From: an uncultured Methylococcaceae bacterium
GTDB taxonomy: Bacteria > Pseudomonadota > Gammaproteobacteria > Methylococcales > Methylomonadaceae
Length of the DNA stretch: 33,361 nucleotides
Direction: 5' to 3'
NCBI GenBank assembly: GCA_903866825.1
Contig: CAIPPE010000273.1
Coordinates: 1-33,361 of the forward strand
Part shown: positions 19,563-31,838 of the stretch, one piece after another
Numbering within the stretch: position 1 is the stretch's first letter
How the letters are laid out: every line of letters begins with the position of its first letter
The notes under the pieces: model-generated
Told to the model about the DNA's origin: nothing
Database searches by the model: none
The model's input: the letters and a program-made list of their open reading frames with translations, nothing else
Translations under genes and position numbers: made by a program

Positions 19563-19641
19563 ATTTATTAAACTGTGTTATATGACACATTATATTTATT
19601 AAACTGTGTTATATGACACAGTTTAATAAATATAATGCGAT
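19563..19641. promoter_or_regulatory. Tandem and inverted repeats with paired TGTG-N8-CACA operators
   Basis: An identical 27-base unit occurs twice, 31 bases apart (19563-19589 and 19594-19620), each holding the near-palindrome TGTGTTATATGACACA. The second copy is extended by an inverted arm, so that 21-base arms (about 19589-19609 and 19618-19638) flank an 8-base centre. The half-site spacing equals that of CRP/FNR-family sites, although the half-sites are TGTGT rather than TGTGA. The same core occurs at 31605-31628 between two TonB receptor genes. Confidence 0.7.
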
Positions 19642-19750
19642 TATTGGGATGCTGTTATCAATGATTTCAATGGGATAGTTATTTGGCGTGATATGTGCTT
19701 TATTGTATGGCTGGTACGACATTCTTTTAACAGGCTAAGCTGAATATTCA

Positions 19751-21217
19751 ATGCTAAATTTTACTTTTTTTAATGAGCAAAAACAGTGGTTTTGTAGTCT
19801 CGTTATTCTTGCTGTTGTCTTATCAATAGCACCTTTTCAAAATGCTCAGGCCACCACCTCGTTTGCAAGGCAGACAGGTGAACCCTGTACTGCTTGTCAC
19901 ATGCAGGCTTATGGCCCCTGGTTAACTCAATACGGCCAGAAGTTTAAGCTGGATGGTTATGTTGCTGGACATGCCAATAAATTGCCAGATGTGATTAATC
20001 CCTTAGCGGTTGAGGTCATAGGATCTTTGACCAATACTCAACAGGATGTACCAGAAGGAACGTATTTTGATAATACAACCGGTCATTCAAAGGCGAATAA
20101 TGGGGTGCTCACTGATTGGGCTGCAGTGTATTACACCGGTCGAATTACTGACAAGATTGGAAGTTACTTGCAGTTGAACATCAATCCACAAATTGGCCGA
20201 TCAGTCAGTTTGGCCATGGCTGATATTCGAGTGGCAGATCACGCGACTATCAAAGGCAATGCGTTGACCTATGGCCTTACTTTTAATAATGCGCCTACCA
20301 TGTCTGATTTTTGGATGACAACTCCGGCATGGATGTACCCTTATACACAATCTTCAGTGACCGTAAAGCCAGCCGCTCAGCCTTGGTTGCAAGCGCTGAT
20401 GGCGGGTGCAAATACGGCGGGTGCAACGGCTTATGTGATGATTAATAATCATCTATATCTTGAAGCTGGTGGTTACACCTCACAATCTCAAAATATGGCT
20501 CAAGGTTTAGGTGTCTGGAATGCCGGATCTCAAAGTTCAGGGGCTCAAGGCGGTTTGATAGACGGTGGGGCTCCTTATTGGCGGATGTTTTTGCAACATA
20601 GTATAGGGCCGCATACCATGATGATAGGAACTTACGGCCTGGCAGCCAAGGTTATCCCTTACTATACTAATGGAGTGGGCACTAATTCCTTTGTCGAATA
20701 TAACGCTGATGCGAATTACTCGTACATGATGAACGACAATAATATGCTGATGGCCATGGTTAAATATACCCATGACAGCATGAAGTTGGGCACCTCACAG
20801 AGTCAGGGCTGGGCAAGTAACGCCAGTAATAATCTAGATAGCGTCATGATGATGGGTATGTGGACCTATAAACAAACCTACAATTTATCGGTGGGCTGGA
20901 ATTATATGAAGGGCAGCTCGGATATGACGCTTTACAACGGAGCAGGCGCTTATGATGTGACCAGTGGTAACAATGGTGTCAATCCTATCACTGGCAGTGC
21001 CAATGGCTCTCCAAACACCAATTCATTTTTATTCCAGGCCGACTATGTGCCCTTTGGTAAAGGCACTTTTGCTGCTGATCCTTATTTAAACCTGCGTTTT
21101 TCAGTGCAATATTGGGCTTATACGCAATTTAATGGCGCCTCAACAAACTATGATGGCGCGGGACGTAATGCAGCGGGCAATAATACGCTGTATTTCGTTG
21201 GCAATATGATGTTTTAA
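19751..21217 (+). CDS. Outer-membrane porin-cytochrome fusion, Cyc2-like
   Basis: 488 residues. A signal peptide (hydrophobic about 14-29, cut near A34) is followed at once by a single c-type heme motif, CTACH at 46-50, in the context SFARQTGEPCTACHMQAYGP. The rest is rich in Tyr, Asn, Gly and alternating strands and ends in VGNMMF with a terminal Phe, as expected of an outer-membrane barrel. This layout, length and the FARQTG-x-x-C-x-x-CH pattern match Cyc2, the monoheme porin-cytochrome of Fe(II) oxidisers, and its relatives. It would pass electrons across the outer membrane. Two c-type cytochrome genes follow. Related uncharacterised cytochrome-barrel families are the alternative. Confidence 0.72.
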   Translation: MLNFTFFNEQKQWFCSLVILAVVLSIAPFQNAQATTSFARQTGEPCTACHMQAYGPWLTQYGQKFKLDGYVAGHANKLPDVINPLAVEVIGSLTNTQQDVPEGTYFDNTTGHSKANNGVLTDWAAVYYTGRITDKIGSYLQLNINPQIGRSVSLAMADIRVADHATIKGNALTYGLTFNNAPTMSDFWMTTPAWMYPYTQSSVTVKPAAQPWLQALMAGANTAGATAYVMINNHLYLEAGGYTSQSQNMAQGLGVWNAGSQSSGAQGGLIDGGAPYWRMFLQHSIGPHTMMIGTYGLAAKVIPYYTNGVGTNSFVEYNADANYSYMMNDNNMLMAMVKYTHDSMKLGTSQSQGWASNASNNLDSVMMMGMWTYKQTYNLSVGWNYMKGSSDMTLYNGAGAYDVTSGNNGVNPITGSANGSPNTNSFLFQADYVPFGKGTFAADPYLNLRFSVQYWAYTQFNGASTNYDGAGRNAAGNNTLYFVGNMMF

Positions 21218-21231
21218 TCCGGTGACTGGCT

Positions 21232-21690
21232 ATGAAATATAATTTTAAAATGACAGCTATTTTTAAGGTAACACTGCTCGCCAGCTTGTTGGGCGTTGCC
21301 AGTTTATCAAATGCAGCAGAAGATACATCGCATATTGATCATCATCAGCACATGGGGGGACATATGCATATGTCGCATGGTGATGACGCAGGCATAGATA
21401 TCCACAGTGAATATTTTGCTGCCATTAAAAAGCTTGCTGATAAGGCGTGTGCGGATTGTCATGGTAAAGCGGGTATCAGTAAAACGGATGATAACCCGAA
21501 TCTGGCGGGTCAGGATGCGATCTATTTCTGTAAAACCATGTATGACTATCGGAGTCGGGCACGCAACTTACCGCCCATCAAAAATACGGATGGACTGTAT
21601 GTGCCGAACATGAACGAAGTGACAGATAAATTGACTGATCAGGAGATCGTCGAATTAGCTGAATATTATGCGCATTTGCGCGCTCAATAA
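21232..21690 (+). CDS. Periplasmic c-type cytochrome with a His/Met-rich N-terminus
   Basis: 152 residues with a signal peptide (cut near A28) and one class I heme motif, CADCHGKAG, at 73-77; a Met in VPNMNEVTDKLTDQEI is a likely sixth ligand, and the fold ends in the usual helix ELAEYYAHLRAQ. Between the signal and the heme domain, residues 34-49 hold many His and Met (HHQHMGGHMHMSH), a pattern found in copper- or other metal-binding segments. It begins 14 bases after the porin-cytochrome gene and would be a natural periplasmic electron partner for it. Confidence 0.88.
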   Translation: MKYNFKMTAIFKVTLLASLLGVASLSNAAEDTSHIDHHQHMGGHMHMSHGDDAGIDIHSEYFAAIKKLADKACADCHGKAGISKTDDNPNLAGQDAIYFCKTMYDYRSRARNLPPIKNTDGLYVPNMNEVTDKLTDQEIVELAEYYAHLRAQ

Positions 21691-21704
21691 AAGTGTAGCA
21701 TCAA

Positions 21705-22049
21705 ATGATAGAACGTACTTTATCTCGTATTGTAGTTATTTATTCACTGAGTTTTGTGATGTTTGGGTTGTCTGGCTGTTCGGTGCTCAGTAAAAAAACA
21801 GAGGCAGAAACCGCAGCAAACACGGCTTATTATGTCTGTTCTGGCTGTCATGGCCCAGATAATGTTAGGGTCAATTTTATGACACCCACGATTATTGGTC
21901 AAAAGAAAGGCTATTTAGCGGCAACATTACGTGATTATCGCGACAAGAAACGCATTGAGCCATTAATGAATGGAGTGGTTGCAAGCTTAAGTGATCATGA
22001 GATTGAAAGCCTGGCTGCTTATTATGCTAATGGGAAAAGGGGGAATTAA
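21705..22049 (+). CDS. Lipid-anchored small c-type cytochrome
   Basis: 114 residues with a lipoprotein signal (FGLSGC, Cys25) and one heme motif, CSGCH at 45-49 (VCSGCHGPDN). A Met in EPLMNGVVASLSDHEIESLA is the likely sixth ligand, and the last helix LAAYYANGK is typical of cytochrome c4/c553-type domains. It follows the preceding cytochrome gene after 14 bases, so the three genes from 19751 are most likely one transcript. Membrane anchoring suggests it shuttles electrons between the periplasmic cytochrome and a membrane partner. The exact partner is not visible. Confidence 0.88.
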   Translation: MIERTLSRIVVIYSLSFVMFGLSGCSVLSKKTEAETAANTAYYVCSGCHGPDNVRVNFMTPTIIGQKKGYLAATLRDYRDKKRIEPLMNGVVASLSDHEIESLAAYYANGKRGN

Positions 22050-22295: not shown

Positions 22296-22889
22296 ATGAA
22301 AAAATTTAGTTTACTAGTGCTATTAACTCTGGTGCTAGTAATCCCAATTGCTGCAAATTCTGCGGTGATAAGTTCAACCACGGTTTATGCTGACGCAACT
22401 GCTGCAGGATTACTTGTTGCGGGTTCCGGTACAACTACAAATACTGAATCAACTGCATTTTTATTGGCCGACCAGGGCGGGTTTAATTCAACCTTTAGGG
22501 GCTTAACGGGGGCCGGAACCACCAATAGCTTTTTCTCTGTTGTGGCAAACACACCTCTATTTTCCGCTACAATGAATTCGAATGTTTTTTCGACTGGAAT
22601 GACACCTACGCTTATTGATCTAACTACGGGGCAAACTATTCCTCTTACTATTGATCCGACAACCGGTATGTATACATTTGGATCATTAGTATCTGGTCAA
22701 GTGTATGACATTCAAATTGCTTACTCAATCGCTGCAGCGACTACGGCTGCGGTTTATACTACTATCACGGTAGCAGCTATCCCTGAGCCTGAGCAATGGG
22801 CTATGATGATAGTTGGTTTGTTTTTAGTCGCAGCGAAAGTCAGTAAAACTAAAAAATCAGCACCCCCCCTAATTCCTTTATCGGCCTAA
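22296..22889 (+). CDS. PEP-CTERM sorting-domain protein
   Basis: 197 residues. A signal peptide (MKKFSLLVLLTLVLVIPI, cut near A23) leads into a Thr/Ser/Ala-rich, low-charge, beta-type region without cysteine. The C-terminus has the exosortase sorting signal: PEP at 163-165 (IPEPEQWAMMIVGLFLV), a membrane helix, then a basic cluster (KVSKTKK). A further 10-residue Pro-containing tail after the basic cluster is unusual. Such proteins are cut by exosortase and released to the surface or biofilm matrix, often glycosylated. An exosortase gene follows directly, making this its likely dedicated substrate. Confidence 0.85.
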   Translation: MKKFSLLVLLTLVLVIPIAANSAVISSTTVYADATAAGLLVAGSGTTTNTESTAFLLADQGGFNSTFRGLTGAGTTNSFFSVVANTPLFSATMNSNVFSTGMTPTLIDLTTGQTIPLTIDPTTGMYTFGSLVSGQVYDIQIAYSIAAATTAAVYTTITVAAIPEPEQWAMMIVGLFLVAAKVSKTKKSAPPLIPLSA

Positions 22890-22913
22890 TAATAATTAAA
22901 TCTGATTGATTGA

Positions 22914-22929
22914 CTGTTGCCTCCAACAG
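22914..22929 (+). terminator. Hairpin between PEP-CTERM and exosortase genes
   Basis: CTGTTG-CCTC-CAACAG forms a perfect 6-base-pair stem with a 4-base loop 25 bases after the PEP-CTERM stop, followed by an A/T-rich stretch with a short T run. It may act as a weak terminator that lowers exosortase expression relative to its substrate. The U tract is poor, so this is uncertain. Confidence 0.4.
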
Positions 22930-23021
22930 AAATTTGAATTTTTGGTGATGGTATAAGTAAGCATTGATAACTCAATGCCTACATTCTATTAAGTGTCTGG
23001 CTGAAATTATGGGTTGGCTTT

Positions 23022-23912
23022 ATGACGATGAGTAGAATCCTAAGTGCAGGGTTACCCAAGCCGAGTTATAACATAGCTTGGATATTGGTGTTTGCAGGGT
23101 TAGCTGGGCTTTATGTGCCAACCTATTGGGATTTGATTCATGGAATATGGAGGTTAGAAGAAACTGCGCATGGGTCTATCATCTTTTTGGTCTTTACTTA
23201 TCTGCTGATTAAGCAGGGCAAGGGCTTGTTTGAATTGGCCTATGCGCCATCAAATGGTATTGGCATCAGTCTGCTTTTTATAGGTCTATTGTTGTATGTA
23301 TTAGGCCGATCCCAAGATATTATTATTTTCGAAGTGGGTTCACAAATTCCCGTCTTTGCCGGTACTTTATTGTTAATGCAAGGTACTGCTAGTCTTCGCA
23401 GCGTTTGGTTTCCTTTGCTGTATCTGGTTTTCATGGTACCTCTCCCGAGTTTTGTGGTCGACAGTCTCACGGGGTTGCTTAAGCCATGGGTTTCATCTAT
23501 TGCAGTAGAAATTCTTTATGATGCGGGTTACCCCATTGCCCGTAATGGGGTTATTATCATGATAGCTCAATATCAGCTTTTAGTTGCGGATGTCTGTTCT
23601 GGACTAAACTCCATGTTTTCATTGTCCGCGATTGGACTCTTGTATATGTATCTGGCTGGGCGATCAGGCTGGGTATATAACGGAGTTATGCTGGCTAGTA
23701 TTCTCCCCGTTGCATTTGTCGCCAATATAGTGCGGATTATAACTTTAATTTTAATTACTTATAATTTTGGAGATGAGGCCGGACAAGGTTTTATGCATGG
23801 TTTTGCCGGGATAGTATTGTTAATTGTGGCAGTTATGTTGCTGTTTATATTGGATAGCTTGCTCGTGCGTTGGATACCCGTTGCGCGACCAATCTCAATA
23901 ACTAAGGTTTAA
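23022..23912 (+). CDS. xrtB: Exosortase (XrtB-like)
   Basis: A 296-residue protein with about eight membrane helices. The exosortase catalytic triad is present: C192 (VADVCSGLNSM), R238 (VANIVRIITL) and H259 (GFMHGFAGI). The N-terminal LYVPTYWDLIHGIWR and HGSIIFLV, with a separate EpsI gene rather than a fused EpsI domain, and the EpsD-type gene nearby, resemble exosortase B systems. It would process the PEP-CTERM protein encoded just upstream. The sub-type B is inferred from layout. The following epsI gene starts 10 bases after its stop. Confidence 0.9.
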   Translation: MTMSRILSAGLPKPSYNIAWILVFAGLAGLYVPTYWDLIHGIWRLEETAHGSIIFLVFTYLLIKQGKGLFELAYAPSNGIGISLLFIGLLLYVLGRSQDIIIFEVGSQIPVFAGTLLLMQGTASLRSVWFPLLYLVFMVPLPSFVVDSLTGLLKPWVSSIAVEILYDAGYPIARNGVIIMIAQYQLLVADVCSGLNSMFSLSAIGLLYMYLAGRSGWVYNGVMLASILPVAFVANIVRIITLILITYNFGDEAGQGFMHGFAGIVLLIVAVMLLFILDSLLVRWIPVARPISITKV

Positions 23913-23922
23913 TCAACTGGGT

Positions 23923-24645
23923 ATGAATATTACGCGTTTACCGATGGCGGCAACTAACAAACCTCAACCATCAATCCTAAAAGCGTTTTTTGTTTTATTG
24001 GTTATGCTAATGGCAGTGAGTTCTGCAATTTTCTTAAAGCCGACTAAAAAGATAGCTGATCAGTCTGAACAATTTAGTATGGAGTCCCTGGTGCCTAAGC
24101 AGTTTGGGCAGTGGCGGGAAGATAATAGCTTTGCTTTGCTGCAGGTTAGTCATGATAAACAAGCGTTACTCAATGAAATTTATAGCCAGAATCTGGCGCG
24201 TACTTATTTTGACGATAAAGGTAATCGAATTATGCTCTCCATTGCTTATGGTGGCGATCAAGGCGATGCTATGCGAGTTCATAATCCTGAAGTCTGTTAT
24301 TTTGATCAAGGTTATCAAGTTCAGAACATAACGACTAACAACCTGGATACTGGTTACGGACAACTATCAACCAAGCGCCTAACGGCCACGAAAGGGTCGA
24401 GGGTAGAGTCAGTGACTTACTGGATTAAAGTGGGTGATACAGTAACTGTTCAGGGTCTTAAATGGAAGTTGGTTCAGATGAAATATGGACTGAGTGGACA
24501 AATACCTGATGGCTTGGTATTTCGAGTGTCAAGCATTGGTGATGAGTTAGGTGGTTATAAGCTACAGGAACAATTTGTTAGAGATTTATTAGCGGTGCTC
24601 TCTCCAGAAAATAGAGTTCACCTGATCGGGAAAACCTCATTATAA
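23923..24645 (+). CDS. epsI: EpsI-family exosortase partner protein
   Basis: 240 residues with one N-terminal membrane helix (about 20-42, FFVLLVMLMAVSSAIFLKP) and a periplasmic EpsI domain: FGQWRE, then the signature HNPEVCYFDQGYQV with its conserved Cys, and VTYWIKVGD. EpsI domains accompany exosortases, either as separate proteins or fused to the C-terminus of exosortase A. The function is unproven but is thought to support sorting or polysaccharide export. It is 10 bases behind the exosortase gene and 21 bases ahead of epsD, a clear operon. Confidence 0.9.
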   Translation: MNITRLPMAATNKPQPSILKAFFVLLVMLMAVSSAIFLKPTKKIADQSEQFSMESLVPKQFGQWREDNSFALLQVSHDKQALLNEIYSQNLARTYFDDKGNRIMLSIAYGGDQGDAMRVHNPEVCYFDQGYQVQNITTNNLDTGYGQLSTKRLTATKGSRVESVTYWIKVGDTVTVQGLKWKLVQMKYGLSGQIPDGLVFRVSSIGDELGGYKLQEQFVRDLLAVLSPENRVHLIGKTSL

Positions 24646-25658: not shown

Positions 25659-26321
25659 ATGAAAGTAATTCAACAGATGGTTTGGGATTGGCCGTTACGC
25701 TTATTCCATTGGTTATTGGTTCTGTCAGTGGTTGGTGCTTATATCACGGGTGAACTTGGCGGCTCATTAACAGAATTGCATAGTCTGTTGGGTGCCCTCA
25801 TCCTGGGTTTGTTGATTTTTCGAGTGCTATGGGGGTTTTTAGGTACTCACTATGTTAGGTTTGTTAATTTCTTTCCTACACCTGAACGGCTAACAGCCTA
25901 TTTTAGAGGAGATTGGCATGGTGTCGGTCATAATCCTCTCGGAGCTTTATCAATTTTTGCGCTGCTATTGGTATTGATAGCTCTAGTCGTGACAGGTTTA
26001 TTTGCAAATGATGACATTGCATTTAATGGCCCGCTATTTCATCTTGTTGATAAAAGCTCAAGTGACAGTTTAAGTGGTTGGCATGGATGGCTGGTTACTA
26101 TTTTATTGGTGCTGGTTGGTTTACATGTCGGCGCGATATTTTATTATCTCCTGATCAAGAAAAATAATTTAATACTGCCTATGGTTACAGGTAACAAATT
26201 ATTGAGATCTGATCAGATTGTGGGTTCAGTGGGTTCCTGCAGTATTCGGCACTTAATAATAGCTATATATATTGCCTTGACAATTGTCTGGGTAATTTGG
26301 AGTGGATTAATAACCGATTAA
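25659..26321 (+). CDS. Cytochrome b561-type membrane protein
   Basis: 220 residues with four or five membrane helices, matching the bacterial cytochrome b561/Ni-Fe hydrogenase b-type subunit group. Likely heme ligands are H17 (PLRLFHWLLV), H41 (TELHSLLGALI) and two late His in SGWHGWLVTILLVLVGLHVG. It would exchange electrons between quinone and periplasmic carriers. The adjacent cytochrome c' gene and a TATAAT at 25606 upstream suggest a separate two-gene unit. This pairing of b561 and cytochrome c' is common. Confidence 0.88.
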   Translation: MKVIQQMVWDWPLRLFHWLLVLSVVGAYITGELGGSLTELHSLLGALILGLLIFRVLWGFLGTHYVRFVNFFPTPERLTAYFRGDWHGVGHNPLGALSIFALLLVLIALVVTGLFANDDIAFNGPLFHLVDKSSSDSLSGWHGWLVTILLVLVGLHVGAIFYYLLIKKNNLILPMVTGNKLLRSDQIVGSVGSCSIRHLIIAIYIALTIVWVIWSGLITD

Positions 26322-26368: not shown

Positions 26369-26836
26369 ATGATGAAATTAAGATACGTGTGGAGTTTAAG
26401 TTGTGTGCTGGTATCTTCAGTTGTTCTCGCAAATCCAATAGAAGATCAAATCAGGATTCGTCAATCCACCTATGCCGTCATGGGCTGGAATACAGGTAAA
26501 ATCAAAAATCAAATTGTAGATCACCCAGAAACATACAATAAAGATCAAATTATTGCGGCCGCCAATACCCTGTCAGCACTCGCCCATTCAAATTTACTGG
26601 AAGAGCTTTATGGCGTAGGTACTGATAAAGGAACCGGTTGGAAACCGACCCGCTTGAAAGCGGATTATTTTCAGAAGCAGGATGAAGTTAAAGAAATTAA
26701 TGCCCGTTTAATTAAAGAAACGGATGAGCTTAAAGTGGTTGCTGAAACAGGTGATGTGGCTGCTATTAAAAGTCAGTTCGGTAAGCTGGGAGCCACCTGT
26801 AAAAGTTGTCACGACCTGATTCGGGTTCGTGAGTAA
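26369..26836 (+). CDS. Cytochrome c' (class II c-type cytochrome)
   Basis: 155 residues from ATG 26369 (26372 is equally possible). These starts give a signal peptide (MKLRYVWSLSCVLVSSVVLA, cut before NPIEDQ), unlike the upstream in-frame ATG at 26297 inside the b561 gene. The mature protein is a four-helix bundle with the heme motif CKSCH close to the C-terminus, the class II mark; RQSTYAVMGWNTGKIK is the typical first helix. Cytochromes c' bind NO and CO and may protect against nitrosative stress. It directly follows the b561-type cytochrome gene. Confidence 0.93.
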   Translation: MMKLRYVWSLSCVLVSSVVLANPIEDQIRIRQSTYAVMGWNTGKIKNQIVDHPETYNKDQIIAAANTLSALAHSNLLEELYGVGTDKGTGWKPTRLKADYFQKQDEVKEINARLIKETDELKVVAETGDVAAIKSQFGKLGATCKSCHDLIRVRE

Positions 26837-26955: not shown

Positions 26956-27366
26956 TTAATTCTCCAGAGTCACAAACGCCAGCTTGGTTATGCCCGCATG
27001 TTGGACGGTGGCCATGACCTCGGCCAGTTTCTCATAAACAACTGTTTTATCAGCATATAAATGCACGCCGATTTCAGGGTTCTTTTCAATTTCAGACTTT
27101 AACGCTGATTCAAGTGCTGGCAGATCCGCCATCGGGATTTTGTTAATGGTGATGACACCTTGGGCATCAACCCCGAGTTGTAAAGGTTGCTCTTTTACAT
27201 CAGCGGTAGTTTGAGTTGTTTTGGGTAGGGAAACATGTACCGATTGCGTTAACAATGGCGCGGTTACCAATAAAATGATAACCAGCACCAGCATTACGTC
27301 CACTAAAGGCGTGACGTTAATGTCGCTTAGAGCGCTTTCTTCTTCTGATTGGGGTTTAAAAGCCAT
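26956..27366 (-). CDS. exbD: ExbD-type proton-channel subunit
   Basis: 136 residues with one N-terminal membrane helix (about 20-42). The proton-path Asp is D23 in NVTPLVDVMLVLVIILLV, followed by the periplasmic domain (VDAQGVITINKIPM, IGVHLYADKTVVYEKLAEVM). ExbB-ExbD uses the proton gradient to drive TonB. It is last in the tonB-exbB-exbD unit, three bases behind exbB. TolR is a relative, but the neighbouring tonB and receptor genes favour ExbD. Confidence 0.93.
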   Translation of the reverse strand: MAFKPQSEEESALSDINVTPLVDVMLVLVIILLVTAPLLTQSVHVSLPKTTQTTADVKEQPLQLGVDAQGVITINKIPMADLPALESALKSEIEKNPEIGVHLYADKTVVYEKLAEVMATVQHAGITKLAFVTLEN

Positions 27367-27369
27367 GAT

Positions 27370-28032
27370 TTAAGCCTGCTCGTTTTTAGTGTTTAAAGCA
27401 ACGGATAAGAAGCTGGCGACAAAGTTATCCAAATAAGAACGCTGGATTTTAACGCGGCGCAAAGCAAAGTTGTAGGCCAATACTGCAGGTACAGCTACGG
27501 CAATACCAATCGCTGTGGCTACAAGCGCATCACCAATCGGCCCTGCCACAACATCTAAACTGGTTGAGCCACTCGCAGTAATTTCATGCATCGCATGCAT
27601 AATACCCAGCACAGTACCAAATAAGCCGACAAAAGGTGCAGTACTACCGATACTGGCCAGTATGGTTAAGCCACCTTCCATACGATGCTGTTCTTGCTGT
27701 AACTGTACACGCATGGCCTGTTCAAGCAATTCTGCCGAGTCGCCATTGTGTTTAAGTAGATTTCCCTTTGCGCTTTGATGCTCTTCAATCCAGGTTGTGC
27801 CGACATAAGCCAGTCGGGCTTCCGATCCTTTGGCTAGATTGGGTGACAGGTTCTTAAGCTGCTTTAAACTGGATAAGCTCCAGAAGGCGTCTTCAAACCG
27901 TTTATTGCAACGGCTGTTATTAGCAAACTGCCAGATTTTAAAGAAAATGAGCGTCCAGGTTAACACTGAAAAAACCAGTAAGGTAAATTCTGTGGCATCA
28001 ATAATAAGCTGGGGGGAAATATGTTCAGGCAT
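27370..28032 (-). CDS. exbB: ExbB-type proton-channel subunit
   Basis: 220 residues with three membrane helices: about 15-35 (FTLLVFSVLTWTLIFFKIW), and a pair near 120-150 and 165-190 around the conserved blocks ILASIGSTAPFVGLFGTVLG and PIGDALVATAIGIAVAVPAV. These are the standard MotA/TolQ/ExbB features, with the two Thr of the channel path. It lies 35 bases after tonB and 3 bases before exbD. It belongs to the energising complex for the two TonB-dependent receptors downstream and divergent. Confidence 0.93.
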   Translation of the reverse strand: MPEHISPQLIIDATEFTLLVFSVLTWTLIFFKIWQFANNSRCNKRFEDAFWSLSSLKQLKNLSPNLAKGSEARLAYVGTTWIEEHQSAKGNLLKHNGDSAELLEQAMRVQLQQEQHRMEGGLTILASIGSTAPFVGLFGTVLGIMHAMHEITASGSTSLDVVAGPIGDALVATAIGIAVAVPAVLAYNFALRRVKIQRSYLDNFVASFLSVALNTKNEQA

Positions 28033-28067
28033 TCGGTAAATATCCTAGTTAATAAATAGTTATAAAA

Positions 28068-28832
28068 TTAGTGTTCTAGTTTAAATTGCAGTTTTTGTAC
28101 GGCTCGTTGAGTTACAGCCACGCCATTGACTATTTTTTCTTTAAACCGCCACTTGCTGATAGCGGTGAGTGCAGCCTCATCAAAAATCTCTTCGGGTTCT
28201 GCGCTAATCACCACCGCATTATCCACTGAGCCATCTGTTTGCACGGTAAATTCGACTTTCACCCAGCCTTCAATATGGCGATTAGCTGCTCGCGTAGGAT
28301 ATTCAGGTGGGACCCGAAATAATGCCACAACGCCAGAACTCACTGTGGGTGCGTCATTGCTAGGTCCAATGGTCTTAGGAGCATTAGACGCGCTGGTTGC
28401 CGTCGAGGTTACCGCAGGGGCTGGGGCAGGTGGCGCCGGAGGAGCGGGCGAAAAGCTGGGCATAGACGCCATTTCTTTTATTACCGGCTCAGGCTTTTTA
28501 ACAACAACCGGTTTCACTATTGGCTTAGGCTTGATCACCGGCTTAGGCTTTTCAGGTTCCTTTTTGACCATAGGCTTGGGTGGTTCAAGGGCGGGTACAG
28601 GCGCTGCAGGTTTGATTACCGGAGCAGATTTTTGCATCACTACTTCCATAATCACAGTATCCGGTTTGGGTGTTTCGATCGGTGCGTTTAAGAGATACCA
28701 CGCTAAACCAAGATGAAGACAAACCACACCGATCAACAGCCCGGTAGCGACAAAAGATGATTTTTTCTGGTTTGCCAGCGGGTTGAACATGACTCTATTA
28801 AAATCGGAGTAAATAGGATGAGTTGTTGACAT
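28068..28832 (-). CDS. tonB: TonB energy transducer
   Basis: 254 residues. A cytoplasmic N-terminus and one membrane helix (about 28-48, FVATGLLIGVVCLHLGLAW) lead into a Pro/Lys/Glu-rich rod (about 55-115, with KPKPVIKPKPIVKP), then a Pro/Ala/Ser linker and the C-terminal TonB domain (about 165-254: FRVPPEYPTRAANRHIEGWV, with SVDNAVVI and ISKWRFKEK). TonB transmits energy from ExbBD to outer-membrane receptors. It heads the tonB-exbB-exbD unit and is followed upstream by a TonB-dependent receptor gene on the same strand. Confidence 0.94.
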   Translation of the reverse strand: MSTTHPIYSDFNRVMFNPLANQKKSSFVATGLLIGVVCLHLGLAWYLLNAPIETPKPDTVIMEVVMQKSAPVIKPAAPVPALEPPKPMVKKEPEKPKPVIKPKPIVKPVVVKKPEPVIKEMASMPSFSPAPPAPPAPAPAVTSTATSASNAPKTIGPSNDAPTVSSGVVALFRVPPEYPTRAANRHIEGWVKVEFTVQTDGSVDNAVVISAEPEEIFDEAALTAISKWRFKEKIVNGVAVTQRAVQKLQFKLEH

Positions 28833-29022: not shown

Positions 29023-31449
29023 TTAGAAGCTGAGCTTAAAGCCTCCCAGATAGGTACGTGGCATACCCAAAACCGATGCGCCTGAGCTGGTCGTACTCAC
29101 TTGGGAGTTGTAGTAGGCGTCTGCGATATTTTGTACGTTCATATAGAGTTCAAGCATTTTGAGAGGTCGGTAACTCAGGTGCAAGTCTGCAGTCGTTGCT
29201 GCACCGTTATTTTTGCCATTGCCATTAACGGTGGCAACATTCAAGGTACTGGCAGGGTAGGTCGGCCAGGTTTTTATCGCCCAGCCGAAGGTTAAGTCGG
29301 GTCTGATGTTCCAGCTACCGCCTTGGGTAAACATCATGATGGGAATGTTGGGTAACTGCCTTCCTGTATACAGTAAAGGCTGATTTCCGGCTGTTTTTAA
29401 TATCGCGGTATTCATTGCCGCTGTGGTACTGTTAAAGTTATCCAAAACAGCATGAGTATAAATGGCACTGGCATTGACCTGTAAGGTGTCTAAGGCATTC
29501 CATTGTCCAAAAAGCTCAGCGCCTTCGGTGGTTACTGAACCAATGTTAAGGTTTTTGGTGACACCTGTATAAGGTGTATTCGCAAGCCCCATGCTGCTTA
29601 GAACGCCTGCATTACAGGTTTGAGCTCCTCCGGAAGCGGCACAAATAGAGGTTGCGTTAATGTAGTTGTCAATCTGTGAGTGGTAAGCTGTGAAGGTGGT
29701 TTTTACATTTTTACCTTTAAAGTCAATGCCCACTTCTTGTCCAAAAGAGGTTTCTGGGACCAGACTCGCATTGCCCAGCGCCGCACTGGAAGCACTCGCA
29801 TAAGTCCGATAGAGCTGGTTCATACCGGGCGCGGCAAAGTTTCTATAGACCGCACTGCGTAGGTCGATGCCCGAATCGAAGCTGTATTTTAATCCAAAGC
29901 GAGGATCAATTTGATTAAAAGTCTGATTGCCAGGCGATTGGTAAGCGTTTGAGGCGGGAGACAGGGCCGCAATCGCAGGGTTTGTTAAATAGATTTCAGA
30001 TTGCTTGGCGGCAATGGCTTGCCATAAATCTTCTCTTAAACCTAAAGTGGCTTCCAGTGGAATGCCTTTAGGTTTATAAGTACCTTGAGCAAAGACGCCT
30101 TCAAATAACGTTTGGCCTTGCATATTATAGGTAGCAAATTGTGAAGCAGAATTTAAAAGTGCAGTGTCGGTACTAAATTTTCCGGAACTGCTGGCTTTTG
30201 TGCCATTTTGCGCATACAGGTTATTGGCATCCAAAGTTGTTACACCCCGCACATCAAGACCCAGCTTGATGTCATCGATGGAACCCCAGTTGTTTAAAGA
30301 CAAGCGGTCTTCAATATAACCACTGGCACCATAAGAACTATAATTCATGGATTCAATTTGTCCTGAAATAACCCCCGAAGTAGCAACATTTGCCCCGGTG
30401 AGCAGGTTAATTGCCCCACCCGTTTGCGTGGTGAAGGATGGACCTTTACCTGGGGTGATATTGATTAAAGCCCCGTTCGCTTTATTCATTTGTGAATAAT
30501 CATAAAAGCCGGTGAAATTAAAGCTGCCTGTTTTAGAATAATCGGTTTTACCGCCACTCCGTACATCCAGCTTATACCACTGGTTATTCGCTGAAGAATA
30601 AGTGATTTGATCCTGTAGTAATTCGCTGCCTGCGAGTTTAAAGAAATATTTGGAATGTTCATTAGGCGTAAAATAAGTTGACCATAAGCCATTATGGGTA
30701 CGCGTGGCCGAACTCACCAGATTGGGCGTCACCTGATCAAACTTTGGTGAAGTATTGTAACCATCACTTTCGATGACGTTAAAATTAAAGCCGGATTGTA
30801 TCTTGTCATTACTAAAGACGGTCATTGCTGCATCACCTACTTTGGTGTTGAGATTGCCGTAGGCAAAACCGACCCGTTTTTCGCCTGCCACAGGCGCTTT
30901 AGTAATAATGTTAATCACCCCCCCCATCGCTAAGTTACCCCACAATGCAGCACCGCCACCACCGCGAATAATTTCGACTTTATCAATGGTGTCCTTGGGT
31001 ATTTGACTCCAGTCAATGGTTCTAAAATAGCCGTCATTCATAGGAACCCCATCAACCATTACCAATACTTTTTCACCACCGGCACTACCACGCATAGAGA
31101 CGGTTGCACCGGTAGGATCGTTCTGGTTTTGAGGGACATTGGGAATAATGACGCCCATTTGCTGGCTGAGTATGGCGTCCAGGGTTAACTCAGGGCTATG
31201 CTGAATCTGTTCTCTGGATAACACGGTAGTGCTGACGTCCATATTTTCAACTTTACTGCCGCGACCGACACTGGCAGAGGTGACTTCCATCGGTTCTAGG
31301 GTAATCGGTTCTTCATCCTGGCTGGCCACTTTTTTTGATGCCGTATTTACGTTTTGAGGGGCTGCCAGAGTTGTTGTCGAGGCTACCAGAAGTAAGCAAA
31401 TTAATGCGTGTCGTGAGTTAAGTGGAAATGGAGGAGTTGTCTCGGTCAT
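29023..31449 (-). CDS. TonB-dependent outer-membrane receptor
   Basis: 808 residues. A signal peptide (hydrophobic about 13-28, cut near A29) is followed by a possible TonB box (LEPMEVTSASVG), the plug domain (about 60-185: TLDAILSQQMGVIIPN, VSMRGSAGGEKVLVMVDGVP, VEIIRGGGGAALWGNLAMGG) and a 22-strand-type barrel ending YLGGFKLSF with a final aromatic. No substrate can be told from the sequence. It is divergent from a second receptor at 31839, and the two share an unusual leader (PPFPLNSR). Its promoter region contains TGTG-N8-CACA sites. Confidence 0.93.
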   Translation of the reverse strand: MTETTPPFPLNSRHALICLLLVASTTTLAAPQNVNTASKKVASQDEEPITLEPMEVTSASVGRGSKVENMDVSTTVLSREQIQHSPELTLDAILSQQMGVIIPNVPQNQNDPTGATVSMRGSAGGEKVLVMVDGVPMNDGYFRTIDWSQIPKDTIDKVEIIRGGGGAALWGNLAMGGVINIITKAPVAGEKRVGFAYGNLNTKVGDAAMTVFSNDKIQSGFNFNVIESDGYNTSPKFDQVTPNLVSSATRTHNGLWSTYFTPNEHSKYFFKLAGSELLQDQITYSSANNQWYKLDVRSGGKTDYSKTGSFNFTGFYDYSQMNKANGALINITPGKGPSFTTQTGGAINLLTGANVATSGVISGQIESMNYSSYGASGYIEDRLSLNNWGSIDDIKLGLDVRGVTTLDANNLYAQNGTKASSSGKFSTDTALLNSASQFATYNMQGQTLFEGVFAQGTYKPKGIPLEATLGLREDLWQAIAAKQSEIYLTNPAIAALSPASNAYQSPGNQTFNQIDPRFGLKYSFDSGIDLRSAVYRNFAAPGMNQLYRTYASASSAALGNASLVPETSFGQEVGIDFKGKNVKTTFTAYHSQIDNYINATSICAASGGAQTCNAGVLSSMGLANTPYTGVTKNLNIGSVTTEGAELFGQWNALDTLQVNASAIYTHAVLDNFNSTTAAMNTAILKTAGNQPLLYTGRQLPNIPIMMFTQGGSWNIRPDLTFGWAIKTWPTYPASTLNVATVNGNGKNNGAATTADLHLSYRPLKMLELYMNVQNIADAYYNSQVSTTSSGASVLGMPRTYLGGFKLSF

Positions 31450-31604
31450 GGTCTCGTTTTCTATTCAGCTATTAAAAGTAAGTTACTCTTTTTTATGTTT
31501 AGTTGAGTAACGTGTTTCGTGAATAATGCAACTTTGATACCAATTCGATATGTGGCTTGATAGACGGGGGTTTAGGGTAAGTTTGATAGATATTCATATA
31601 TCTG

Positions 31605-31654
31605 AAAGTGTGGCATATGACACACTTTTAAGAAAAAATAAGGCATATAACATA
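31605..31654. promoter_or_regulatory. Palindromic operator between two TonB receptor genes
   Basis: The 24-base near-palindrome at 31605-31628 has core TGTGGCATATGACACA, differing from perfect symmetry at one pair. A weaker copy, GGCATATAACATAG, lies 30 bases on (about 31641-31654). The core and paired spacing match the sites at 19563-19620. The rest of the 389-base gap (31450-31838) is A/T-rich and shows no further gene. Confidence 0.7.
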
Positions 31655-31838
31655 GTTTTATTTGATGTCGGGTAAAGTGACATTGAGGATCTTTAAATTA
31701 AGTGTCAGTAATCTATAGGGTAAATGACTTGTTTTTTTATGTTGGCGTATTCTTTGCTTTTAGCTCGTTCATGCCGGTTGCTCAAACAGGAGTAAATGAA
31801 GAGCAGCTTCTTTTAACATAAAAACAACACATTAAATT

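What the first reader, a model, noticed from the sequence alone, without database searches (positions are those of the whole stretch)
19751..22049. Cyc2-like porin-cytochrome fusion with two c-type cytochromes in an apparent operon
A single heme motif placed right after the signal peptide and followed by a predicted outer-membrane barrel ending in Phe is the layout of Cyc2, so far mostly tied to Fe(II) oxidation. Here it is followed within 14-base gaps by a periplasmic and a lipid-anchored c-type cytochrome, which could form a complete route for electrons across the envelope. In a methanotroph-like genome this would suggest extracellular electron exchange, with iron or minerals as donor or acceptor.
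Basis: partly seen in the sequence, partly recalled or inferred. Interest (0 to 1): 0.72.

Follow-up and report, generated by a model that had tools for sequence, protein, structure and literature searches.

The report
Methanotroph Cyc2-type electron port operon
A bacterium related to methane-eating Methylobacter carries three adjacent genes, for a predicted outer-membrane pore fused to a heme-binding motif (a relative of the iron oxidase Cyc2) and for two small proteins with heme motifs; together they likely pass electrons between the cell and iron or humic matter outside, and they share predicted DNA switch sites with genes that likely import iron-siderophores.

Summary
In detail: 19751-22049 encodes a 488-aa protein with one N-terminal CXXCH, a His/Met-rich c-type cytochrome and a lipoprotein c-type cytochrome, with 14-base gaps. 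AlphaFold2 predicts a 16-strand barrel. The protein is homologous over its full length (30% identity, E 6e-55) to a Cyc2 that heads a rusticyanin operon in another genome. Not found in print in the searches named: (1) A-B-C is kept in 12 of 12 fetched loci, in 10 of them with a cytochrome b561 nearby that would link to the quinone pool; (2) a sigma-54-type promoter lies 80-83 bp below a palindrome in most relatives, and such palindromes recur in 9 retained clusters of the genome, 6 of them before TonB/FecIR/PepSY genes, with no Fur-like box better than chance. Likely mechanism: a Cyc2-type port exchanging electrons with extracellular iron or humics, made together with iron uptake. Direction, substrate and regulator are untested. 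I rate it a new variant of a known kind.

The parts
19572..19591 (.). distal palindromic operator (ACTGTGTTATATGACACATT)
   Evidence: Pattern with 3 mismatches or fewer: 14 sites in the own genome, 0 with the reversed control; kept in most related loci
19603..19622 (.). proximal palindromic operator (ACTGTGTTATATGACACAGT), 31 bp from the distal one
19684..19699 (+). sigma-54-type -24/-12 element TGGCGTG-ATAT-GTGCT, 81 bp from the proximal operator
   Evidence: GG-N10-GC in 12 of 13 loci (L012 has GG-N10-GT); 80-83 bp from the proximal palindrome in 12 of the 12 loci that have one; 102 bp and a weaker element in G199. The consensus is recalled. A scan of the window alone shows no excess of such matches.
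19751..21217 (+). gene A: Cyc2-like porin-cytochrome (488 aa), one CXXCH, predicted 16-strand barrel
21232..21690 (+). [quoted passage not shown]
   Evidence: PF00034 3.1e-10; matches the first half of the diheme PdsA profile, far below its cut-off; alignment
21705..22049 (+). [quoted passage not shown]
   Evidence: PF00034 6.4e-4, just over the gathering score; matches the second half of PdsA; L22, G24, C25 of the lipobox invariant in 11 of 11 aligned
25659..26321 (+). cytochrome b561-type membrane protein (PF01292), likely inner-membrane partner
   Evidence: about 30 bases behind C in L008 and L013; in the window a PEP-CTERM-like gene, XrtB, EpsI and a 296-aa gene lie between
26369..26836 (+). 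cytochrome c' (PF01322), part of the neighbourhood in the window's clade
31607..31656 (.). two copies of the same palindrome upstream of the TonB-dependent receptor gene (31607-31626, 3 mismatches; 31637-31656, 5 mismatches)
31527..31542 (-). sigma-54-type element TGGTATC-AAAG-TTGCA of the receptor gene
29023..31449 (-). TonB-dependent receptor (808 aa), likely co-regulated with A-B-C
   Evidence: PF00593 and PF07715; nearest solved chain a heme receptor, E 4.6e-9, best over residues 19-186
26956..28832 (-). ExbD-like (26956-27366), ExbB (27370-28032) and TonB (28068-28832) genes behind the receptor
   Evidence: ExbB and TonB; the 136-aa gene was named ExbD by its look and place and was not scanned

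Best explanation
Genes A-B-C likely form a Cyc2-type electron port: A, homologous to the Cyc2 of a rusticyanin operon, is predicted to sit in the outer membrane as a 16-strand barrel with one heme and would likely exchange electrons with iron or iron-humic complexes outside the cell, handing them to the two small c-type cytochromes B and C. C is a predicted lipoprotein and likely docks at the membrane; B likely carries electrons through the periplasm to or from a cytochrome b561 in the inner membrane, whose gene belongs to the conserved neighbourhood. The operon is predicted to be read from a sigma-54 promoter activated by a still unidentified enhancer-binding protein that binds a pair of palindromes; similar palindromes stand before siderophore-receptor (FecI-FecR-TonB receptor) and PepSY genes, so the port is likely made together with iron-uptake systems. 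Shown by calls: the genes, homology, synteny, the DNA elements and their recurrence. Predicted: barrel, lipoprotein, promoter. Inferred: heme loading, location, partners, regulation. For direction I commit to inward flow (oxidation of Fe(II) or of reduced Fe-humic complexes) at about 0.55, against about 0.35 for outward flow.
Against: The published motif AXPXFAR[QK][TY] is met except for one residue (Thr for Pro). No heme placement could be read from the model. I met no biochemical test of this clade in what I read. If the shared operator signals iron scarcity, lithotrophic Fe(II) oxidation would be an odd partner. The activator was not found: neither of two candidates fits the distribution of the sites. 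KS41 (L009/G136) and G126 keep the operon and a sigma-54-type element but show no palindrome; G199 has a palindrome but a weaker element at 102 bp. In relatives, of 19 fetched regions with palindromes only 10 show the element at 3 mismatches within 60-200 bp, and 5 have none of my labelled genes nearby. Distant relatives such as L210 were not scanned for the operator.
Confidence: 0.68

Rival explanations
1. Outward port for iron nutrition: quinol-driven electrons run b561, B, C, A and reduce extracellular Fe(III), Fe-humics or Cu(II), to mobilise metal for uptake rather than to gain energy.
For: Operator shared with siderophore-receptor, FecIR and PepSY_TM genes; b561 as likely quinol partner; His/Met-rich, metal-binding-like segment in B of the window's clade (6 of the 11 aligned); dissolved organic matter, which can chelate metals (recalled), raised cyc2 expression (PMC12211021).
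Against: Characterised Cyc2 proteins oxidise Fe(II) (PMC8406198, passages). No Fur-like box better than shuffles (best of 14 regions 6 mismatches, reached by about 1 in 5 shuffles). The signal of the regulon is unknown; 4 of 8 FecR systems lack the operator. The organic matter in that study added iron rather than removing it from the medium as dosed.
Confidence: 0.3
2. Outward respiratory port: electrons from methane oxidation go to iron minerals or humics when oxygen is scarce.
For: [quoted passage not shown] the genome also holds a DmsE/MtrA-type decaheme and an MtrB/PioB a few genes from a paralog of A.
Against: MtrAB is the better fit for that task; the window operon has no multiheme cytochrome.
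Confidence: 0.15
3. Not an electron port: an ordinary porin whose heme segment is a structural plug, with B and C serving another pathway such as a terminal oxidase.
For: The barrel alone resembles general porins; no Pfam or NCBIfam model covers A.
Against: CXXCH and the surrounding residues are strongly conserved: C46, C49, H50, P56, L58, G62, F65, K66 invariant in the 84-row alignment; B and C follow A in every A-type locus examined; homology to rus-operon Cyc2.
Confidence: 0.07

Closest known systems
Cyc2 of Acidithiobacillus-type rus operons
   Same: N-terminal export signal, one CXXCH, PXL, porin barrel; full-length homology 30%, E 6e-55 to a rus-operon Cyc2; first gene of an electron-transfer operon.
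   Different: Thr for Pro in the motif, two more residues between CXXCH and PXL than in L210; partners are two single-heme cytochromes and a b561, no rusticyanin or cox genes adjoin; the A. ferrooxidans rus promoters are sigma-70 (PMC5506826, passages), here sigma-54-type.
cyc2 genes of Methylobacter sp. S3L5C
   Different: There the paralog and the A-type gene start 4.3 kb apart and B is of the second version (about 30% to the window's); in the window genome the two paralogs are on other contigs. The paper passages I read do not mention B, C, the b561 or the promoter.
PdsA, periplasmic diheme shuttle of Mtr systems
   Same: B matches its first half (39.8 bits), C its second half (34.2 bits), as if a diheme shuttle were split in two. 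PdsA's context: PMC8805035 (passages).
   Different: Both far below the cut-off of 330 bits; C is a predicted lipoprotein; no mtrCAB adjoins.
MtrAB / MtoAB porin-cytochrome conduits
   Same: Same task in outline: electrons through an outer-membrane barrel.
   Different: Separate decaheme and porin there; one heme motif fused to the barrel here. The genome has an MtrAB-type pair elsewhere.

Membership tests
Cyc2 | N-terminal export signal followed by one CXXCH | tested here: met
   signal judged by eye
Cyc2 | AXPXFAR[QK][TY] upstream of CXXCH (PMC8406198, passages) | tested here: inconclusive
   Window ATTSFARQT: Thr for Pro. Strict PXFAR[QK][TY] in 25 of 121 sequences. The rus-operon Cyc2 of L210 also departs (AVPAFARQL).
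Cyc2 | PXL shortly after CXXCH | tested here: met
   PWL after 5 residues; same spacing in 112 of 121; the paper gives 4
Cyc2 | C-terminal porin barrel of about 16 strands | tested here: met
   16 strands in the AlphaFold2 model; predicted, not measured
Cyc2 | homology to a Cyc2 in a diagnostic context | tested here: met
   30%, E 6e-55 to L210 Cyc2; operon checked, rusticyanin 136.4 bits against a cut-off of 146.7, the 195-aa Cup-position protein matched no family
Cyc2 | score against the FeGenie Cyc2 profiles | not testable with these tools
   Profiles not held; PMC12810054 reports cluster 2 for Methylobacter Cyc2 (passages), gene not identified there
Cyc2 | Fe(II) oxidation by the protein | not testable with these tools
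   needs expression
rus operon | cyc2-cyc1-cup-cox-rus gene order | tested here: not met
   A is followed by B, C, then a PEP-CTERM-like gene, XrtB, EpsI
PdsA | NCBIfam NF049874 over the cut-off | tested here: not met
   39.8 and 34.2 bits against 330
MtrCAB | multiheme cytochrome with a separate porin | tested here: not met
   one CXXCH in each of A, B, C
sigma-54 / enhancer-binding-protein regulon | GG-N10-GC promoter element | tested here: met
   by consensus only
sigma-54 / enhancer-binding-protein regulon | upstream activator sites | tested here: met
   palindromes 81-191 bp upstream at 9 of 9 retained clusters, one with a 4-mismatch element
sigma-54 / enhancer-binding-protein regulon | identified activator | tested here: inconclusive
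   two candidates tested by distribution; neither fits
sigma-54 / enhancer-binding-protein regulon | loss of transcription without rpoN | not testable with these tools
   needs a mutant

The most novel reading that the evidence does not exclude
A Cyc2-type iron oxidase has been recruited into an iron-acquisition regulon: methanotrophs build a surface electron port of single-heme proteins, under sigma-54 control and together with siderophore receptors, to change the redox state of iron or iron-humic complexes before uptake. The reported induction of cyc2 by dissolved organic matter would then be a metal response, not a sign of feeding on its electrons.
Probability: 0.3. Interest if true: 0.75.

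Novelty: new variant of a known kind. Interest (0 to 1): 0.52.

Why it matters
Cyc2 is used as a marker gene of microbial iron oxidation, and its expression in a lake methanotroph has been read as a sign of electron transfer from organic matter. If the operon instead belongs to a metal-uptake regulon, that reading and the use of the marker change. The clade departs from the published Cyc2 motif by one residue or more and may be missed by motif screens.

Tried and rejected
Fur control: no Fur-like box better than shuffles in 14 upstream regions. Identifying the activator: an EBP beside a PepSY_TM gene (L092) has close orthologs (81% or more) in 6 of 10 genomes, own included, but not in G172, which has sites, while G126, which has it, has few (3 against 1 in the control); a 320-aa EBP (L091) has matches at E<=1e-80 in 8 of 10, including G136, which shows no site at its A operon, and not in G184, which has sites; both left open. 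Only these two of the roughly ten EBPs were tested this way. Solved-structure search by sequence with A: nothing; with the PepSY protein: nothing. PHROGs and PADLOC were not searched. One palindrome hit (C323:33851, 3 mismatches) lies inside a coding frame and was dropped before the count of 9 clusters. A second AlphaFold job was available and not used. My label of 16 A-type rows in the tree is one side of a branch only against the other labelled groups; unlabelled rows (P0052-P0063) fall among them, so I claim only the 23-row clade (100/100). I considered PrsR of PEP-CTERM systems as activator because XrtB adjoins (recalled); the window scan found no such palindrome near the PEP-CTERM-like gene at 22296, so I did not pursue it. 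Searches of print: (cyc2, porin fusion, PdsA, methanotroph, Methylobacter, S3L5C, sigma-54, RpoN, operon in various sets); in the listings and the passages read I saw no report of this operon or of sigma-54 control of cyc2, but most listed papers were not opened and supplements were not read.
Full report
OBSERVATION. A (488 aa) has a hydrophobic start, CTACH at residues 46-50 and a final Phe. B (152 aa) is a PF00034 cytochrome with a segment rich in His and Met between signal peptide and heme motif. C (114 aa) has a lipobox and CSGCH; its PF00034 score is barely over the gathering score. A has no Pfam match above 0.05, no NCBIfam match at E<=1 and no solved-structure match at E<=5 by sequence.

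FAMILY. 640 proteins match A at E<=1e-5; the best 120 are listed. Most have no name; the named ones belong to Methylococcales, apart from one called Gammaproteobacteria bacterium. 84 sequences (the window protein and 83 of those 120) were aligned; C46, C49, H50, P56, L58, G62, F65 and K66 are among the invariant positions. Of the 121 examined (120 and the window), 113 have one CXXCH, 8 none; 112 have PXL five residues after it; 103 end in Phe and 13 in Trp; 25 meet the strict published motif PXFAR[QK][TY]. The window protein reads ATTSFARQT, one residue off.

HOMOLOGY TO CYC2. A profile of the family (A2) hits 55 of 369 genomes of the class, own genome included, at E<=1e-8; in many of them only the N-terminal part matches. 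Of the other 54 genomes, 17 have some match to the rusticyanin model and none reaches its cut-off; the best by far is in G462 (137.2 bits, cut-off 146.7), 7 kb from its family hit, which covers profile positions 5-458 of 459 (E 3e-89). The stretch reads, on one strand, Cyc2, a 195-aa protein in the place of Cup (no family match), CoxB, CoxA, CtaA, CtaB, rusticyanin, close to the rus order given in PMC10654088 but without cyc1, coxC or coxD. A aligns with this Cyc2 at 30% identity, E 6e-55; the own-genome paralog at 29%, E 1e-49. In a maximum-likelihood tree of 67 rows (64 different) the A-type proteins and seven metagenome rows form a 23-row clade (100/100) on a long branch, apart from the paralogs and from the rus-operon Cyc2. 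On plasmids, tblastn with the own paralog found 9 records, among them Acidithiobacillus ferrooxidans, Methylocystis sp. MJC1 and Caballeronia; the three that I opened all have c-type cytochrome genes behind the match. Among the 27 class loci L168-L194, which mostly hold 1.5 kb downstream, 9 have a CXXCH frame within 700 bases, one of them only 67 aa long; in L172 and L185, and in the plasmid stretches L208 and L209, these resemble B or C; in L173, L174, L176, L178-L181 and L207 they do not.

NEIGHBOURHOOD. All 12 loci hold A, B and C in order (in L014 A lacks about 46 residues). So do the 9 other A-type genomes. The two sets overlap: L004 and G184, L006 and G142, L012 and G172, L009 and G136, L011 and G200, L015 and G148 agree in upstream sequence or contig length, so the independent additions are G154, G126 and G199. 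Ten of the 12 loci hold a b561 gene: with cytochrome c' in the window's clade (L004, L007, L008; L013's contig ends in the b561), with a DUF1924 (PF09086) cytochrome in the other (L009, L010, L011, L012, L014, L015; in L014 the b561 is 1.4 kb off); L005 ends too soon and L006 shows none. In L008 and L013 the b561 follows C after about 30 bases; in the window a PEP-CTERM-like gene, exosortase XrtB, EpsI and one more gene lie between. B of the second clade is only about 30% identical to the window's and has His where the window's clade has Met at the likely distal ligand position (my reading of the alignment).

OWN GENOME. Two paralogs at 39-40% lie on other contigs. One lies three genes from a decaheme DmsE/MtrA-type cytochrome (TIGR03508, 292.6 bits against 192.2) and MtrB/PioB porin (TIGR03509, 450.6 against 240) pair; the genes between encode proteins with one CXXCH and hydrophobic stretches, of which one was scanned without a match. 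So the genome has both kinds of envelope conduit. In the family sample 61 of 201 genomes have a relative of A; 10, own included, have the A-type (68% or more), the next full-length matches being 43% or less.

PROMOTER. Two palindromes 31 bp apart lie 130-180 bases before A, and a GG-N10-GC element 81 bp behind the start of the proximal one. In 13 loci (own and 12 relatives) the element is present in 12 (L012 has GT for GC); palindromes, by a loose criterion (up to 7 mismatches), in 12 (L009 none); in these 12 the distance from proximal palindrome to element (L012's variant included) is 80-83 bp; the pair spacing is 31 in nine, 32 in L012, 21 in L014, with one site only in L007. For L009, L011 and L015 the start was moved 81 bases upstream to match the window's. 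Of the three added genomes, G154 fits (81 bp), G126 has the element but no palindrome, and G199 has a palindrome with a 4-mismatch element at 102 bp. In the own genome the 20-base pattern with up to 3 mismatches has 14 places, the reversed control 0. They form 10 clusters; one, inside a coding frame, was dropped. All 9 others have a sigma-54-type element 81-191 bp downstream (8 at 3 mismatches or fewer, one at 4). Background windows with such an element at 3 mismatches: 163 of 6864; Markov-resampled cluster windows: 82 of 4500; binomial tail 9e-13. The distance range of that test was set, and background windows overlap and include coding DNA, so the figure is a guide. A scan for the element alone in the whole window shows no excess (49 found, 52 expected): it is its place that is unusual.

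REGULON. The 9 clusters precede: A-B-C; the window's TonB-dependent receptor (with TonB and ExbB behind it); three ECF sigma-FecR-TonB receptor sets (C44 twice, C127) and an ECF-FecR pair on C295, whose receptor gene lies further along the same strand with other genes between; a PepSY_TM gene (C238); a 315-aa protein with an export signal by eye and no Pfam match (C296); a small hydrophobic protein (C117) (the ECF genes of the second C44 set and of C127 were named by eye). Of the 8 FecR genes of the genome 4 have such a site and 4 do not; of 22 receptor plugs most have none; the C91 receptor has a weaker pair (4 and 6 mismatches). The receptor of the first C44 set is a siderophore receptor (TIGR01783, 310 bits against 223.5) nearest to ferripyoverdine receptors. 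Seven related genomes have 1 to 16 sites against 0 to 4 in the control (G142 has 8 against 4). I fetched 20 regions from five of them and G136's A operon, not all their sites: 19 have sites, 14 of these hold genes that match those of the own regulon (A operons, receptors, ECF-FecR, PepSY, or the C117 and C296 proteins), 5 (L105, L107, L113, L114, L117) do not; 10 of 19 show the sigma-54-type element at 3 mismatches within 60-200 bp. No Fur box better than chance was found. In A. ferrooxidans the rus promoters are sigma-70 (PMC5506826, passages). That PepSY_TM proteins can reduce siderophores is recalled.

LITERATURE. Cyc2 homologs in Methylobacter from a humic bog: PMC6344600 (passages). Two cyc2 genes in Methylobacter sp. 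S3L5C, with cyc2 upregulated when organic matter was added; the additive raised the iron of the medium by about a third: PMC12211021 (abstract, passages and section 3 part 1 of 2). FeGenie cluster 2 Cyc2 in Methylobacter genomes: PMC12810054 (passages). G154 has one contig of 4,815,745 bp, the size given for S3L5C (PMC9723741, passage), so I take it to be that strain: its two genes are a paralog and the A-type ortholog (84%), starting 4.3 kb apart, with B, C, DUF1924 cytochrome and b561. Which of the two responded to organic matter alone is not stated in what I read beyond that they differed between methane levels.

MECHANISM. Shown: genes, homology, synteny, recurring DNA elements. Predicted: barrel, lipoprotein, promoter. 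Inferred: A takes or gives electrons at the surface, C and B relay, b561 links to quinone, an enhancer-binding protein switches the operon on with iron uptake. Direction is open; I lean to oxidation because characterised Cyc2 proteins oxidise Fe(II) (PMC8406198, passages), but the regulon makes reduction for metal uptake a serious rival.

Noticed in passing
window 22296-24645: A PEP-CTERM-like gene (below the family cut-offs) followed by exosortase XrtB (TIGR03113, over the cut-off) and EpsI type B stand between C and the b561 gene; L004 and L006 have the same genes behind C, L008 and L013 do not show them.
   Followed up: partly
L166 6427-9741 and L154 5611-6984 (G000 C255): A DmsE/MtrA-type decaheme and MtrB/PioB pair lies a few genes from a Cyc2-like paralog; between them are three hydrophobic proteins with one CXXCH each, of which one was scanned and matched no Pfam or NCBIfam model.
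   Followed up: partly
L106 5080-7252 (G154, likely S3L5C): The membrane-cytochrome gene behind the Cyc2 paralog looks split in two, with a 379-aa reading frame on the other strand between the pieces.
   Followed up: no
L070 2826-3773 (G000 C296): A 315-aa protein of no known Pfam family has the same operator and sigma-54-type element; L119 has a partly similar protein near such a site.
   Followed up: no
L066 2697-2942 (G000 C117) and L103, L110, L120: An 81-aa hydrophobic protein recurs next to the palindrome in several genomes; function unknown.
   Followed up: no
window 21232-21690 and L106 9395-9802: B of the two operon versions differs at the likely distal heme ligand (Met or His), and the second version has extra cysteines.
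   Followed up: no
L091 and L093 (G000 C132, C192): Two similar (89%) enhancer-binding-protein genes lie beside a membrane protein with an MHCIGMCG motif (TauE-like by eye); possibly a duplication or a mixed assembly.
   Followed up: no
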